Position numbers and translations under genes: made by a program. The notes beneath the pieces are model-generated. The model saw only the letters and a list, made by a program, of their open reading frames with translations, ran no database searches and was not told the DNA's origin. Of a stretch of 34,957 nt of DNA, positions 12,686-34,874 are shown in pieces. Numbering within the stretch: position 1 is the stretch's first letter; every line of letters begins with the position of its first letter. Origin of the DNA: Thermoflexus sp. (lineage in GTDB: Bacteria; Chloroflexota; Anaerolineae; Aggregatilineales; Aggregatilineaceae). The DNA is taken from the NCBI GenBank assembly GCA_020724485.1, contig DYGW01000012.1, forward strand, positions 1 to 34,957, written 5' to 3'.

Positions 12686-12835
12686 TGGGGGCATCTCACG
12701 CCAGGGGCGAGATTCTTCGAACCGCCGAGACGCAGAGGACGCAGAGTAAAGACAGGTGAAGAACGTTTATTGGTTCTTCTCCGCATTCTCGGCGTCTCTG
12801 CGGTGCTGCTCTGCCCCACAGACGAAATGCCCCCA
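12686..12835. repeat. Nested palindromic repeat, 'acgcagag' type, copy 2
   Basis: An outer inverted repeat, tgggggcat (12686-12694) and atgccccca (12827-12835), encloses an inner imperfect palindrome whose arms are at 12721-12746 (accgccgagacgcagagg) and 12779-12804 (ending ctcggcgtctctgcggt). The inner part shares its acgcagag core with the palindrome at 94-165. With the LexA promoter it explains most of the 418-base gap between the hydrolase and lexA. Confidence 0.65.
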
Positions 12836-12924
12836 TGCGGTGCGGAACGCACACAATCTTCGGGCGCGCCCAAGATTTCAGGCAGCCCGCGCCGCTGTGC
12901 AACTTAAGCCATTCCTTAAATGAC

Positions 12925-12981
12925 TTGACATCGAACATAGGTTCGGCCTATAATGAAGAGCAAAATGCGAACTATTGTGCG
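12925..12981 (+). promoter_or_regulatory. lexA promoter with SOS boxes
   Basis: A near-ideal promoter, TTGACA (12925-12930) and TATAAT (12949-12954) with an 18-base spacer. The spacer contains cgaacataggttcg (12932-12945), a perfect CGAAC-N4-GTTCG LexA box of the Bacillus type. A second, one-mismatch box, cgaactattgtgcg, lies at 12968-12981, just past the expected start of transcription. LexA bound here would block its own promoter, the usual SOS autoregulation. Confidence 0.88.
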
Positions 12982-13001
12982 AAAAGCACGGAGCGACTCC
13001 T

Positions 13002-13685
13002 ATGGAACGACACGCCCTCTCTGAACGCCAGAAGAAGATTCTCAAGTTCATTGAGAATTTTCTGGCCAAGCATGGTTACCCGCCGACCATCCGCGATATT
13101 GGCGAGGCGGTTGACATCGCCTCGACCTCGGTGGTCAACTACAACCTCAACAAGCTGGTGGATCGCGGTTACATCAAGCGCGATCCCAAAGTCTCGCGCG
13201 GGCTATGGCTGGCTAACCAGGAACCGCCGGCCAAAGAGCTGTCGGTCGGTTATGCTGACCCGGCCAGCCTGATCCAGATTCCGTTGGTGGGCAAGATCGC
13301 GGCCAGCGCCCCGGTGCCGCTGCCCGGCGAGGACTTCGGCTACTACTACGACACCGACGACCTGATCGAAGTGCCGCAGTCCATGATCGGCGCGGCGCAC
13401 CGCGAAGACCTGTTCGCGCTGCGCGTCACTGGCGATTCGATGATTGACGCGATGGTGGCTGACGGCGACATCATCATCCTCAAGCGGCAGAATGTCGCGC
13501 ACAACGGGGACATGGTGGCGGTGTGGCTCACCGAGCGCGGCGAGACGACGCTCAAGAAATACTTCCACGAGGGCAAGAAAGTCCGCCTGCAGCCGGCCAA
13601 CCCGCTGATGGACCCGATCTACGTGGACGCCGACAAGGTGAACGTTCAGGGCCGCGTGCTGGCCATTCTGCGCGCGCTGCATTAG
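13002..13685 (+). CDS. lexA: LexA repressor
   Basis: The SOS regulator: it represses DNA-repair genes until RecA on single-stranded DNA triggers self-cleavage. The 227-residue protein (about 25 more than E. coli LexA) has a winged helix at about 1-70 (GYPPTIRDIGEAVDIASTSVV). The S24 peptidase domain follows, with Ser146 (VTGDSMIDAMVADGD) and Lys185 (ETTLKKYF) as the catalytic pair. The expected cleavage region IAASAPVPLPG has Ala101-Ser102 where most LexA proteins have Ala-Gly. The ATG at 13002 has ggag upstream and begins the typical helix; a start 9 codons earlier would overlap the second operator. Confidence 0.95.
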   Translation: MERHALSERQKKILKFIENFLAKHGYPPTIRDIGEAVDIASTSVVNYNLNKLVDRGYIKRDPKVSRGLWLANQEPPAKELSVGYADPASLIQIPLVGKIAASAPVPLPGEDFGYYYDTDDLIEVPQSMIGAAHREDLFALRVTGDSMIDAMVADGDIIILKRQNVAHNGDMVAVWLTERGETTLKKYFHEGKKVRLQPANPLMDPIYVDADKVNVQGRVLAILRALH

Positions 13686-13855
13686 GCTGCGCCTGCGCCA
13701 CACGCCAGGTCCTTGCCCTGTATAACCGGCTCCTTCCCCTCGCCCGCCGTGCTGTCGCTCCGTGCTGGCGCAAGGGAGGGAGTCGGTGTGTGTCTGGGCG
13801 GCAGTGTGCTACATTCTGGGCGGTGATCAGTCTGCATCCGAGGGAGAGAGCACCC

Positions 13856-14314
13856 ATGCCCGCTGTTGGTGAGAAAGCGCCCGATTTCGCCCTGAAGAAC
13901 CAGAACGGCGAGACCGTCCGCCTGAGCGATTTTCGCGGCCAGAGGGTCGTCCTCTTCGCCTTTCCGAAGGCGGCCACATCCGGCTGCACTACCCAGGCGT
14001 GCGGTTTCCGCGACCAGTTCCCCAAGATCGAGGTCGCCAACGCGGTTGTGCTGGGCCTCAGCCCGGACGAGCCAGGGGACTTGCTCAAGTGGCAGCAGGC
14101 CGAGAACCTGCCCTACGACCTGCTTTCCGACCCCGATCATGCCGTGCTGGAGGCATGGGGCGCGTGGGGCGAAAAGTCCATGTACGGCAAGACCTACATG
14201 GGCGTGCTTCGCTCGCACTGGATCATTGACGAAGAGGGGCGGATTGCCGACGCGCAGATCAAAGTCAGCCCGACGGACAGTGTGGCGCGGGCGGTGGCGT
14301 TCCTGGGCGGGTAG
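13856..14314 (+). CDS. Thiol peroxidase of the Bcp/PrxQ type
   Basis: A 152-residue cytoplasmic peroxiredoxin that reduces hydrogen and organic peroxides using thioredoxin-like donors. Cys44 (peroxidatic) and Cys49 (resolving) lie in KAATSGCTTQACGF, the C-X4-C spacing of the Bcp/PrxQ group. The N-terminus VGEKAPDFALKNQNGETVRLSDFRG is typical. The ATG at 13856 has gagggagag upstream. The long open frame further upstream overlaps lexA and has no family sequence. The 170-base gap after lexA shows no repeat or terminator. The 3' end converges on the rhomboid gene with 12 bases between. Confidence 0.9.
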   Translation: MPAVGEKAPDFALKNQNGETVRLSDFRGQRVVLFAFPKAATSGCTTQACGFRDQFPKIEVANAVVLGLSPDEPGDLLKWQQAENLPYDLLSDPDHAVLEAWGAWGEKSMYGKTYMGVLRSHWIIDEEGRIADAQIKVSPTDSVARAVAFLGG

Positions 14315-16675: not shown

Positions 16676-16713
16676 AGGGAGAGGGGTGCTGTTGCCCCTC
16701 TCCCTTTAGTTTT
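16676..16713 (+). terminator. Intrinsic terminator after the BMP gene
   Basis: A perfect 11-bp stem (agggagagggg at 16676-16686, cccctctccct at 16695-16705), an 8-base loop and the tail ttagtttt. It lies 20 bases after the stop codon. Partial read-through would give a graded binding protein to membrane component ratio. Confidence 0.85.
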
Positions 16714-16761
16714 ACTTGTAGAAGATGCCTAGTGCGATTTGACGATCGTGATCGGTAGTCG

Positions 16762-16797
16762 CTTGTAGGAGCGGGTTTGGAAACCCGCTCCTACAAG
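16762..16797. repeat. Perfect 17-bp inverted repeat
   Basis: cttgtaggagcgggttt (16762-16778) and its exact complement aaacccgctcctacaag (16781-16797) are separated by only gg. No U-run follows. With the terminator and a degenerate caataacc tract (about 16855-16935), it fills the 350 bases before the ABC ATPase. It looks like a dispersed palindromic (REP-like) element. Confidence 0.85.
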
Positions 16798-17006
16798 ACA
16801 TCTTGCGCGCGCTGCCCGTCTTGAATGTCAAATCTCACTAGACTTCGCTGGAAAGCTGGTTGTTGGTTTCTGGTTCTTGGCTGTTGGGCGGGCATCAAGC
16901 GCCAGCCACCAATTACCAATAACCTATCATCAATCACCGGCGGTAGCGGCATCATACTATTCTGATTTCGTCCTGATCGCTCCATCAACCTCGTATTGAG
17001 ACGCTT

Positions 17007-30392: not shown

Positions 30393-30703
30393 GGGCCTGT
30401 AGCTCAGCGGTGAGAGCAGCCGGCTCAAGGCAGCAAATCGCGGATCGCGGATTTGCGCAGCATGGGCTATCTGGAGAGTAATCACCAGACGAAAACCTGT
30501 CAAATTCGGGGAAGCCTTCGTCGCCGGACATGGTAATCCCGAGCCAAGCCCCATGACCTGGGGAAGGTGTAGAGACTGTACGGCAGGCCCCCCCCAACCG
30601 AGGGGTGAAGAGACAGTCCAGCCCACAAACCCGAAAGGGGCAGCGAAAGCTGTAGCTGGGAAGCATAACCGGTCGGTCGCAGGTTCGAATCCTGCCGGGC
30701 CCA
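30393..30703 (+). tRNA. CAU-anticodon tRNA, probably tRNA-Ile2, split by a group I intron
   Basis: Exon 1 is 30393-30425 (acceptor gggcctg, D arm, anticodon stem gccgg, then C32 and U33). Exon 2 is 30664-30703 (anticodon CAT, aa, ccggt, T arm gcaggttcgaatcctgc, acceptor cgggccc, discriminator A). Joined, they give a normal cloverleaf with loop ctcataa. G1-C72 excludes the initiator. The GGGCC acceptor and A73 favour Ile2, whose C34 would be changed to lysidine; elongator Met is the alternative. No CCA is encoded. Confidence 0.9.
30426..30663 (+). ncRNA. Group I intron (IC3-like) in the anticodon loop
   Basis: A 238-nt self-splicing intron without a protein gene. Conserved core segments occur in order: caaattcggggaagcc (P3/P4), ggtaatcccgagccaagcc (P5/J6), gaaggtgtagagact (P3/P7 side, R) and aagagacagtcca (S), where actgt and acagt form P7. 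These closely resemble the Azoarcus tRNA-Ile and cyanobacterial tRNA introns. The exon ends in U33 and the intron in G, as required. ggcu near 30468 can pair with the exon end as P1. A hairpin gcaaatc/gatttgc fills the P1 loop. Confidence 0.93.
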
Positions 30704-30715
30704 CTCTCCGCACCC

Positions 30716-30826: not shown

Positions 30827-32116
30827 CTAAGGGTGCGGCGGCATACGCCCTTCCTTGCTGTTGATCTCCTCGTGCGGATCGGACATCGGATACAGGTCGT
30901 CCGCTTCCACGTCTTGCGTCAGGCGCAGGGCAGAAGCGCCCGGCAGGGCCGGGTTGACCGAGAATAGCTCGCGCTGATCGGGGTTGTTTGCGTCAGCAGC
31001 GGCGTCTGAGTGGAAGACGACAGCGGTGTTGTCGCAACGGAAGCTGGGCGCGCGGTCGTCGGCGTCATTGTCGGTCAGGGCCGTCACCTGGCCGGTAGCC
31101 ACATCCACCAGGAAGATGTCGTAGTCGCCGTCCGCATTGGCATGGAACGCGATGGAGCGCCCGTCCGGTGAGAAGGTGTGCCCGGCGACAGCCACGCCCA
31201 GGTCGGTCAACTGGCGGCTTTCCAGCGTCGCCAGGTTCATGATCCACAGGTCATAGACACCGGCCTCGTTAAGCTGGAGCCAGGCCATCCACCTGCCGTC
31301 GCGCGTCAGAATCGGCACCACGTCCTCGGTGTCGTTGTCGGTCAGTTGCGTCAGCTCGCGCGAGTACACGTCCAGCAGATAAATCTCCCAGTCGTGGACG
31401 CCGTCCTGGTCACCCTCGCGCTCGCGGTCGCTCTGGAAGACCAGGCGTCCACCTGCCGGCTCATAGCAGCCACCGTCCGGGAACCAGAACGGGTTAATGT
31501 CGTTGCCTGGGTCGTTGGTCAGGCGAATGGGCAGCCCGTCGCCCATCACGTCAGCCATGTACAACTCCCAGTTGCCGTCGCGGTTGCTTTCCCAGGCAAT
31601 CAGGCTGGCTGGCCCCCACACCGGGTTCACATCATTGCCACTGTTGTAGGTCAGGCGCACCTGCTGCGACCCATCGGGCTTGGCCAGGTAAATCTCCCAG
31701 CCGCCGAGTTCGTCGCGATTGGTCGTGAAGGCGACCCAGTCACCTTCAGGCGCGTAGCTCGGCTGAATGTCGTGGCTGTCATCGCCCCGGGTGACGTTGT
31801 TGGCCGGGATGTTAAGGCCATCGTCGGTCAGGCGATAGATGTCCCAGTCGCCGTCGCTGTTGCTGTGATAGAAGACCAGTTCTGGCAGGCACACCGTGCA
31901 GATGAACGGCACCGGCCCGCCAACGCCAGACACAATGATGCCCAGGCTGATCGGGTCCCAGGTTGGGCGCGGCAGGTCGGTGCCCGGCTCGCCGGGGGTC
32001 TCTGGCACTGTGGGGAATTCTGGCTGGCCCGGCTCCTGCGCCTGTGCGTACTGGGGCGCTGGCACGATAGTGGCTAGTACGGCTATCACACAAAGCATCG
32101 CTATTTTCAGATACAT
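30827..32116 (-). CDS. Secreted TolB/PD40-type beta-propeller protein
   Basis: A 429-residue exported protein. The signal peptide is MYLKIAMLCVIAVLATIVPA with likely cleavage after AQA near residue 26, followed by a Pro/Glu-rich linker. From about residue 75 come repeated propeller units of the PD40 kind (NSDGDWDIYRLTDDG, TTNRDELGGWEIYLAKPDG, WESNRDGNWELYMADV, FHANADGDYDIFLVDV). The ATG at 32116 has aaggag upstream; the longer open frame has no signal peptide. No catalytic domain is visible, so it is probably a binding or surface protein. Its 5' leader is the structured region described next. Confidence 0.82.
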   Translation of the reverse strand: MYLKIAMLCVIAVLATIVPAPQYAQAQEPGQPEFPTVPETPGEPGTDLPRPTWDPISLGIIVSGVGGPVPFICTVCLPELVFYHSNSDGDWDIYRLTDDGLNIPANNVTRGDDSHDIQPSYAPEGDWVAFTTNRDELGGWEIYLAKPDGSQQVRLTYNSGNDVNPVWGPASLIAWESNRDGNWELYMADVMGDGLPIRLTNDPGNDINPFWFPDGGCYEPAGGRLVFQSDREREGDQDGVHDWEIYLLDVYSRELTQLTDNDTEDVVPILTRDGRWMAWLQLNEAGVYDLWIMNLATLESRQLTDLGVAVAGHTFSPDGRSIAFHANADGDYDIFLVDVATGQVTALTDNDADDRAPSFRCDNTAVVFHSDAAADANNPDQRELFSVNPALPGASALRLTQDVEADDLYPMSDPHEEINSKEGRMPPHP

Positions 32117-32167
32117 GGATGACTCCTTAGTGCTCAATACGCCCCTGCGGAAAAACTGTTTGCAGTG

Positions 32168-32532
32168 CTCACGTGGCGCGAACGTGAGTAGCCAGGGCAA
32201 AGACACCCCTCCCACAGGAGGACACACGAAACCACCGCAAAGGTCGAAGGGCAGCGTATCTACCTTCGGGTGTCAATAGCGGGACTCTCTGGGACCCCCA
32301 CGCCTTTCCCCTCGCCCCAGCGCAATGCAAAGGCCAGGGATGGATATCAGGCATGAGAGTCATTGCCCCATAGACCTTGGTATTTCCACCGGAGAAGACC
32401 CCCTCCCCTTCAACGCGGTTGCCCCGTGCAGTGTCCCCAACAAGGCAGCGCAGCCCCATAATGCGCCGCATCCCCACGTGATGCGGATGATGCCCTTGTT
32501 GGCAACTCCCGCCTGCGCTAACTAAGCCAGGC
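32168..32532. other. Strongly structured intergenic region, candidate ncRNA or element relic
   Basis: At least six perfect or near-perfect stems lie here: ctcacgt/acgtgag (32168-32188), cctcc/ggagg (32208-32221), gcctttnn/aaaggc (32302-32334), and gcctg/caggc (32511-32532). The nested set is gttgc/gcaac (32418-32422, 32502-32506) around caacaaggca/tgcccttgttg, which itself encloses gcgca/tgcgc (32448-32466) and cgcatc/gatgcg (32467-32485). The strand is not decided. On the minus strand it would be the leader of the TolB-like gene. No known family was recognised. Confidence 0.5.
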
Positions 32533-32831
32533 AAGCGGCGCTCAGAGCAATTCACCCTAATAGTACATGGTTTGGCCGCGCTAGGCAACTACCCTGTAAG
32601 CACATTTGGTTATTTTGTGGAATTTGGTGGCAATGATCAGTGTTGCTACGTCCCGTCCCCCTCCCCCCGCGCCGACTCCCTGCCGCGCATCAGTCGCTTG
32701 ACTTCACCCCCCGCTCGGCCCTGGCGCCCCCGCGCTCATTTTTGCTTTTGCGCTATTTCAGGTTATTGTTGCAGGCGGGATATTAGTGGGATCACACCCA
32801 CAGCCGGGCCAGCCTGCGCCCGGATCAGATC
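32533..32831. other. Rest of the gap before the DUF4012 gene
   Basis: Apart from C-rich low-complexity stretches near 32655-32680 and an AT-rich patch near 32605-32630, nothing is seen. The promoter of the DUF4012 gene is probably here but I cannot pick one with confidence. Confidence 0.3.
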
Positions 32832-34874
32832 ATGGAACACAAGCTCATGCCAGATATTGAGACTCCCTCGCTGCCCGACCTGCGCAATCCGGTGGAGCAG
32901 AGTTTTCGTGAGAAGCGGCGGCGCCGGCGGCGGAGCAGACGCCGCTGGTACAACCGCGCGCTGCGCCGGCTGGGGCGCTACAACTGGCGTATTCTGCTGC
33001 TCATGGCGGTGACCTTCTCGGCGACCATCGTCATGGGCGGGCTGATCCTCGCCTTCAATGCGCGCACCCAGGTCGAAACCTCGTGGGAGAGCCTGGATCG
33101 CATCTGGACTTCGCTGGGCAAGAAGTCGGGCACTGACCTGACCCTGGCCGATTTCGAGCGCCTGCGCTCTGGCGTCCGCGACCTCAACCGGAGCCTGGGC
33201 AGCGCCAGGAAGCAAACGCTATTTCTGCGACCGCTCACCTTCCTCAGCGGTGACCTGGTAACGACGTTCGACATGCTCGATGCAGCGCAGGAACTGACCG
33301 TCGCTGCCGATGATATGCTGACCGGCCTGCAACCGGCGTTGTTCTTCTTGAGCGGAGGGGAAGGAGACGAACGAGTCACAGCGCAGTTCTCATCTGGCGA
33401 GCGCGTGGTCGAGCTATTGGGTTTGGGGCGCGGGCGCTTCGTCAGCGCCGGGCACCATCTGGACGCGGCCAGAGCCATCATCGAACGCCTGGACCCGACC
33501 AGGGTTTCGTCCGGCCTGTTGGCGACAGTGGACGGCCTGACCCAAACCTATGACGAGCTGGCCGACTTCCACCGCGTGCTGCTCGCCTCGCCTGACTTGC
33601 TCACGGCGGCGTTGGGCCTCAACCAAACCCAAGCCTATCTGATCCTGGCCCAGAACAACGACGAGTTGCGCCCTTCCGGCGGCTACGTGAGCACGTATGG
33701 CTGGCTGCGCGTGCGCAACGGGCGCGTGATAGATTACGATTACCGGGCGACAACAACCACCAGTCCCAACCCGCCGCCGTCCACCCTGGCCAGCCAGGTA
33801 CAGATTCCCGACTGGTGGATTCAATACCGGCAGCCGATCTATGCCGCCTGGGACTCTAGCTGGTACGTGGACTTCCCCTCGACAGCGCGCATGGCAGCCT
33901 GGTACTACGACAACGGCGGCAATCCTAACAGTCCGGTTGACGGCGTGATCGGAATGGACCTGGTGGCCTTCGAGTACATTCTGCAAGAGCTAGGCAGCGT
34001 GTACGTGCCCGACTACGATGTGACCGTCTCCGGGGCCAATTTCCGCCAGACGGTGTACACCATTCGCGCGGCGGGCGAAGGTCACAAGCAGTTCGTGGCT
34101 GCCGTCTACCGCCAGATTCTTAACGACTGGCAGCGCGTGGATCAGGAGAAAAGCATCGAGATACGCGGGGCGCTGCTCAAGGCGCTGCTCGAAAAGCACA
34201 TCATGCTCTACTTCCTGGACGATGCGCTCAACGATGCCGTGCAGGTGCTCGGCTGGCTGGGCGAGCAGAAACCAGCCCTGGACACCGACTACCTGTTGGT
34301 GGCCGACGCCAACCTGGGCAACAAGGCCAACCGCTCGGTCAAGCGCCAGTTTACCTATGACGTGACCATTGAGGACGACGGCTCGCTGAGCAGCAGCCTG
34401 GCGATTGCTTACGACTTCTCAGAGCGCGTCGCCGAGCTAGACCCCGCCGTTGGGCCGGAGCACGGCGACACCAACTACCGCAGCCTGACCCAGGTCTTCG
34501 TGCCGGCCAACAGCACCCTGACCCAGACCGAAGACCTGAGCGGCCCTCCGACCGTCGTCAACACGGACACGCACACGGCCTTTGTGGCACGCCTGGGCGT
34601 GGACTACAACGAGAGCGAGCGTTACCAGTTCTTCTACACCACGCCCCCCCTGGTTGAGCCTTTCGGGTCGTTCTACCGCTACCGGCTCCTGGTGCAGAAG
34701 CAGCCCGGCACGCTCAGCGATCCGGTCAGCGTGCAGCTCCGGTTGCCCCCTGGCGCGCGGACGGTCTACACCGATCCAGCGCCAGCGGCCAGTTACAGCC
34801 TGGATCAGCCGGTGCTGGAGTTCCGCCTCAGCCTGACTTCCGACCAGGCCATCGAGGTGGTCTTCACGCGGTAA
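32832..34874 (+). CDS. DUF4012 domain membrane protein
   Basis: A 680-residue single-pass membrane protein. A cytoplasmic tail of about 50 residues is extremely basic (runs of Arg at 29-38 and 43-50). One transmembrane helix lies at about 53-75, and the rest is outside. The DUF4012 hallmark NQTQAYLILAQNNDELRPSGGYVSTYG lies at about 264-290, followed by the family pattern up to a C-terminal beta-rich region. DUF4012 proteins are common in Gram-positive bacteria and Chloroflexota, often near cell-surface polysaccharide genes; the function is unknown. The ATG at 32832 lacks a strong ribosome-binding site; an ATG at 32847 is possible. Confidence 0.85.
   Translation: MEHKLMPDIETPSLPDLRNPVEQSFREKRRRRRRSRRRWYNRALRRLGRYNWRILLLMAVTFSATIVMGGLILAFNARTQVETSWESLDRIWTSLGKKSGTDLTLADFERLRSGVRDLNRSLGSARKQTLFLRPLTFLSGDLVTTFDMLDAAQELTVAADDMLTGLQPALFFLSGGEGDERVTAQFSSGERVVELLGLGRGRFVSAGHHLDAARAIIERLDPTRVSSGLLATVDGLTQTYDELADFHRVLLASPDLLTAALGLNQTQAYLILAQNNDELRPSGGYVSTYGWLRVRNGRVIDYDYRATTTTSPNPPPSTLASQVQIPDWWIQYRQPIYAAWDSSWYVDFPSTARMAAWYYDNGGNPNSPVDGVIGMDLVAFEYILQELGSVYVPDYDVTVSGANFRQTVYTIRAAGEGHKQFVAAVYRQILNDWQRVDQEKSIEIRGALLKALLEKHIMLYFLDDALNDAVQVLGWLGEQKPALDTDYLLVADANLGNKANRSVKRQFTYDVTIEDDGSLSSSLAIAYDFSERVAELDPAVGPEHGDTNYRSLTQVFVPANSTLTQTEDLSGPPTVVNTDTHTAFVARLGVDYNESERYQFFYTTPPLVEPFGSFYRYRLLVQKQPGTLSDPVSVQLRLPPGARTVYTDPAPAASYSLDQPVLEFRLSLTSDQAIEVVFTR

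What the first reader, a model, noticed from the sequence alone, without database searches (positions are those of the whole stretch)
32168..32532. Undescribed structured RNA or element relic between the TolB-like and DUF4012 genes
A 365-base stretch outside any accepted gene contains at least six stems, including a nested multibranch fold at 32418-32506 whose outer stem encloses two separate hairpins. Such nesting is rare by chance and unlike the simple palindromic repeats elsewhere in the window. It could be a leader RNA of the TolB-like gene (minus strand), a free small RNA, or the remains of a mobile element. A minus-strand frame of 139 codons crosses it, and I cannot exclude that coding constraint explains part of the sequence.
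Basis: partly seen in the sequence, partly recalled or inferred. Interest (0 to 1): 0.72.

Follow-up and report, generated by a model that had tools for sequence, protein, structure and literature searches.

The report
Ordinary untranslated leader before a gene

Summary
The stems are in the sequence, but the claim made from them does not hold. The nested fold at 32418-32506 folds well on the minus strand (z -3.7). However, multibranch folds of that size occur in 7.5% of other 103-nt windows here and in 8.4% of shuffles; 13 of 682 unselected windows reach that stability. In the only alignable relative (G004), 6 of 16 outer-stem pairs break, and its segment folds no better than shuffles. The whole leader folds unusually well only in this genome, not in three congeners.

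The interval has no Rfam match, codon pattern, second genomic copy or empty site, so it is neither a hidden gene nor an element relic. It lies between a minus-strand promoter-like element at 32560-32588 (TTGCCT-17-TACTAT), in place in four congeneric genomes and (core pattern) in a second genus, and the Shine-Dalgarno/ATG of the TolB-like gene. I read it as a ~437-nt 5' leader.

Ordinary finding; interest low.

The parts
32560..32588 (-). Putative promoter of the TolB-like gene: TTGCCT (32588-32583), 17-nt spacer, TACTAT (32565-32560)
   Evidence: Full 32-nt pattern in G000, G002, G003 and G004 with 0-1 mismatch and nowhere else in 13 genomes. Core TTGC-N17-TGTACTAT occurs once in the window (expected 0.00) and once in G009, upstream of the same gene (expected 0.01). 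The generic sigma-70 scan did not flag it.
32117..32553 (-). Inferred ~437-nt 5' untranslated leader of the TolB-like gene; contains the reported interval 32168-32532
   Evidence: Lies between conserved promoter-like element and Shine-Dalgarno. 69% identical to G004 within the interval, below the 79% at four-fold degenerate sites. No codon periodicity. Leader lengths 437-478 nt in four congeneric genomes.
32168..32188 (-). Hairpin CTCACGT-TCGCGCC-ACGTGAG, 39-40 nt upstream of the Shine-Dalgarno
   Evidence: 26 of 28 cells paired over four species; two pairs with compensatory changes; no invariant pair. Only hairpin site of the leader shared by all four at a fixed distance from the SD; 7 of 300 shuffled sets give one.
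32437..32502 (-).
   Evidence: Outer helix loses 6 of 16 pairs in G004; G004's segment folds with z +0.46 and a different structure.
32122..32128 (-). Shine-Dalgarno AAGGAGT of the TolB-like gene
   Evidence: Conserved AAGGAGT/GAGGAGT in four congeneric genomes.
30827..32116 (-). TolB-like (PD40 repeat) gene, 429 aa from ATG 32116; N-terminus looks like a signal peptide (by eye)
   Evidence: Pfam PF07676 E 9.6e-25; 87% identical orthologue in G004.
32832..34874 (+). DUF4012 gene, divergent neighbour
   Evidence: Pfam PF13196 E 5.3e-22; orthologues 76-90% identical in all four congeners.

Best explanation
The interval is the bulk of a ~437-nt untranslated 5' leader of the TolB-like gene. RNA polymerase would start near 32553 from the minus-strand promoter 32588-32560, transcribe through the interval, and ribosomes would start at ATG 32116 using the Shine-Dalgarno 32122-32128. 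Most of the leader is free to drift: sequence and large-scale fold differ between species while place and length stay similar. The exception is a short hairpin (32168-32188) a fixed 39-40 nt upstream of the Shine-Dalgarno, which probably stabilises the transcript or keeps the ribosome-binding region open. Shown: promoter-like element, Shine-Dalgarno, lack of coding signal, loss of the nested fold in the relative, retention of the hairpin. Inferred: that the promoter is active, the start site, and the hairpin's role.
For: Syntenic interval in four congeneric genomes. Promoter element unique in each of those four genomes and in place, with its core also before the orthologue in G009. Conserved Shine-Dalgarno. 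Interval identity to G004 (69%) below that of four-fold degenerate sites (79%). Flat codon-position differences and frameshifts. Fold z near zero in three relatives. Hairpin 32168-32188 retained with compensatory changes.
Against: No transcript data. The promoter hexamers match the sigma-70 consensus only partly, and a generic scan missed the site. A promoter nearer the gene, making the real leader shorter, cannot be excluded. Only two sequence pairs align well, so a lineage-specific functional structure in this genome (leader z -3.9) is not formally excluded.
Confidence: 0.74

Rival explanations
1. A lineage-specific regulatory RNA: in this species the leader folds into a real multibranch element that controls the TolB-like gene, as a riboswitch-like or attenuator device would.
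For: Minus-strand z -3.2 to -3.9 in this genome; it sits in a leader; inner hairpin 7 (GGCGCA/TGCGCT) is kept in G004.
Against: Outer stem loses 6 of 16 pairs in G004 and G004 folds differently; the leader of three relatives is no more stable than shuffles; pair retention is little above random substitution (0.74 against 0.70); no Rfam match; such folds are common in this GC-rich window.
Confidence: 0.07
2. A separate small RNA transcribed on the minus strand from promoter 32588-32560 and ended before the TolB-like gene.
For: Promoter position; a weak terminator-like stem at 32222-32207 on the minus strand.
Against: That stem is not kept in G004 (alignment) and has no proper T run; no sequence conservation beyond the genus; the leader runs straight into a conserved Shine-Dalgarno.
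Confidence: 0.06
3. Decayed gene or mobile-element remains.
For: 139-codon open minus frame; a 134-nt block 78% identical to G004.
Against: No other copy in the genome; no phage or plasmid match; same-sized interval at the same place in congeners, so no empty site; no Pfam or PHROG match; differences spread evenly over codon positions, 38/43/43.
Confidence: 0.04
4. Non-transcribed intergenic DNA with scattered protein-binding sites; the real TolB-like promoter lies nearer the gene and the 32560-32588 element is an operator.
For: Sigma-70 consensus match is imperfect; no transcript data.
Against: Hexamer spacing of 17 and a TG before the second hexamer are fixed in five genomes and two genera; the hairpin changes keep pairing on the minus-strand RNA through G-U pairs, which a DNA palindrome would not need.
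Confidence: 0.09

Closest known systems
Long bacterial 5' untranslated leaders (non-riboswitch)
   Same: Promoter far upstream, no coding capacity, ends in a Shine-Dalgarno before the gene
   Different: Transcription not demonstrated here; nothing else unusual
Structured cis-regulatory RNAs found in long GC-rich intergenic regions (approach of PMC6429828, PMC8632094, PMC11109978; abstracts seen)
   Same: Long GC-rich intergenic region upstream of a gene, stable predicted fold
   Different: No conserved architecture, no covariation above control over the main fold, no alignable homologues beyond the genus

Membership tests
Structured cis-regulatory RNA (riboswitch-like leader) | Main fold conserved among homologues | tested here: not met
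   Outer helix loses 6/16 pairs in G004; relative folds with z +0.46
Structured cis-regulatory RNA (riboswitch-like leader) | Covariation above control over the main fold | tested here: inconclusive
   3 compensatory pairs against 1.5 in shuffles for the 103-nt fold (56/500), 5 against 3.5 for the leader; only two sequences
Structured cis-regulatory RNA (riboswitch-like leader) | Match to a described RNA family | tested here: not met
   No Rfam match at gathering score; only chance-level hits at E 2.1 and 4.9
Untranslated 5' leader | Promoter upstream on the same strand, conserved | tested here: met
   Promoter-like element conserved in place; its activity was not tested
Untranslated 5' leader | No coding signal | tested here: met
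   Flat codon-position differences in both species pairs, stops and frameshifts in G004; no Pfam match
Untranslated 5' leader | Transcript covering the region joined to the gene | not testable with these tools
   No RNA-seq available
Mobile-element remains | Other copies, or an empty site in relatives | tested here: not met
Protein-coding gene (139-codon frame) | Frame and codon-type conservation | tested here: not met

The most novel reading that the evidence does not exclude
The leader carries a genus-specific regulatory RNA module for a PD40 protein: a hairpin at a fixed distance from the Shine-Dalgarno with two alternative pairings sharing a 3' arm (CTCACGT/ACGTGAG or GTTCGCG/CGTGAGC), acting as a small switch on translation or stability.
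Probability: 0.1. Interest if true: 0.4.

Novelty: new member of a known kind. Interest (0 to 1): 0.1.

Why it matters
It matters little beyond annotation. It places a likely promoter and a long leader before a TolB-like gene in an Anaerolineae lineage. It also shows that a strong single-sequence fold in GC-rich intergenic DNA is not evidence of an RNA: the same place in the nearest relative folds no better than shuffled sequence.

Tried and rejected
Rfam at gathering and relaxed thresholds gave nothing meaningful. Blastn of the intergenic region over 100 relatives found one alignable homologue, G004. Tblastn of the 139-aa frame matched the G004 syntenic place with a stop; the remaining hits were weak and scattered. 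Pfam and PHROG gave nothing for that frame. Phage and plasmid searches gave nothing. RNAalifold on the two species pairs gave similar z on both strands for G000/G004 (-2.12 and -2.05) and a consensus without the outer stem. The hairpin sequence has no other copy in the seven genomes scanned apart from the G004 orthologue. I considered that longer TolB-like proteins in G002/G003 might mean this leader was the remains of their N-terminal domain; it is not, because that domain lies after the signal peptide, inside the gene. A first promoter pattern with the wrong spacing was corrected. A literature search for long leaders in this phylum found nothing.

Full report
Setting. The window is a contig of a genome (G000) whose nearest held relatives are Anaerolineae/Anaerolineales metagenome-assembled genomes (record titles). 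The reported interval 32168-32532 lies between a minus-strand TolB-like gene (PD40 repeats, ATG at 32116) and a plus-strand DUF4012 gene starting at 32832.

Observation. The stems are real. The outer stem is a perfect 9-nt inverted repeat, 32437-32445 / 32494-32502. On the minus strand it encloses two hairpins, with z -3.67 for 32410-32512 and -3.22 for the whole interval; the plus strand is less remarkable. To see how unusual this is, I folded 682 other 103-nt stretches of the window, counting both strands. Thirteen (1.9%) reach z <= -3.67. An outer stem of at least 8 pairs closing two branches of at least 5 pairs is present in 7.5% of them and in 8.4% of dinucleotide shuffles. The nesting itself is therefore common in sequence of this composition, and the stability is what one expects of the best few among several hundred stretches.

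Homologues. Of 100 relatives, only one congener (G004) has an intergenic region alignable end to end, at 70%. Two more congeners (G002, G003) have the same gene pair with a similarly sized but strongly diverged spacer. In the fourth congener (G001) the contig ends before any TolB-like gene. A four-way alignment shows islands of conservation: a minus-strand element at 32560-32588, the Shine-Dalgarno region of the TolB-like gene, and the DUF4012 promoter region. The minus-strand element reads TTGCCT-17 nt-TACTAT with TG before the second hexamer. It is unique in each of the four genomes and in place. Its core TTGC-N17-TGTACTAT also occurs once upstream of the orthologous gene in another genus, G009 (expected by chance 0.01), and once in the window (expected 0.00). 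A generic sigma-70 scan does not flag it, so calling it a promoter rests on its position, spacing and conservation. If it is one, the transcript begins near 32553 and the reported interval is most of a ~437-nt leader; the corresponding stretch is 437-478 nt in the other three congeners.

Constraint. Within the interval G000 and G004 are 69% identical (block 32343-32476: 78%), below the 79% of four-fold degenerate sites in the two flanking genes. The 139-codon minus frame is not a gene: differences fall evenly on codon positions (38/43/43), G004 has stops and frameshifts in it, no family matches, and the likely promoter lies inside it.

Structure. The nested fold is not retained. In G004, 6 of 16 pairs of the outer helix and 3 of 10 of one inner hairpin are broken, and the G004 segment folds differently with z +0.46. 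Over the whole leader, 74% of the G000 pairs are retained against 70% under randomised substitutions, and z is -3.9 in G000 but -0.9, +0.5 and -0.7 in G004, G003 and G002. Consensus folding of the G000/G004 pair gives similar modest z on both strands and omits the outer stem.

One stem does stand out. The hairpin 32168-32188 (minus strand CTCACGT-TCGCGCC-ACGTGAG) is kept in all four congeneric genomes, 39-40 nt upstream of the Shine-Dalgarno. All seven pairs vary, 26 of 28 cells remain paired, two pairs show compensatory changes and the other kept variants are G-U pairs valid only for the minus-strand RNA. It is the only hairpin site of the leader shared at a fixed position; independently shuffled sets give one in 7 of 300 cases. 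That shuffle ignores relatedness, and only four sequences are available, so the support is modest. An alternative pairing sharing the 3' arm is also seen.

Element remains. The interval has no second copy in the genome, no phage or plasmid match, and no empty site: congeners carry a spacer of similar size between the same two genes.

Conclusion. Best reading: an ordinary, mostly neutral 5' leader of the TolB-like gene with a conserved upstream promoter-like element and one small conserved hairpin near the ribosome-binding site. The hairpin's role (transcript stability or keeping the start region open) is inference. Transcription itself was not testable here.

Noticed in passing
window 30393-30704 (+): A tRNA with anticodon CAT is split in its anticodon loop by a ~238-nt group I intron (about 30428-30665; Rfam Intron_gpI, 55.5 bits; joining the flanks gives a clean 74-nt tRNA). 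Its 3' end is also present in congener G004. From memory, group I introns in tRNA-Ile(CAU) of other bacteria are the nearest lead; not tested.
   Followed up: partly
window 32680-32730 (+): A ~35-50-nt dispersed repeat (consensus like CGCTTGACCTCACCCCCGCTCGGCGCTGGCGCGCC) with about 35-40 partial copies in this genome, several at contig ends, and copies in congeners. It lies just outside the reported interval.
   Followed up: partly
window 30827-32116 (-): The TolB-like protein here and in G004 lacks a ~330-aa N-terminal region that orthologues in G003, G002 (same genus) and G009 carry after their signal peptide: 429 aa here against about 750-760 aa in G003 and G009.
   Followed up: partly
window 16710-16812 (-): The most stable fold relative to shuffles in the background scan (z about -7.3, minus strand), probably a strong hairpin; several stretches at 12700-13900 are also below z -4.
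   Followed up: no
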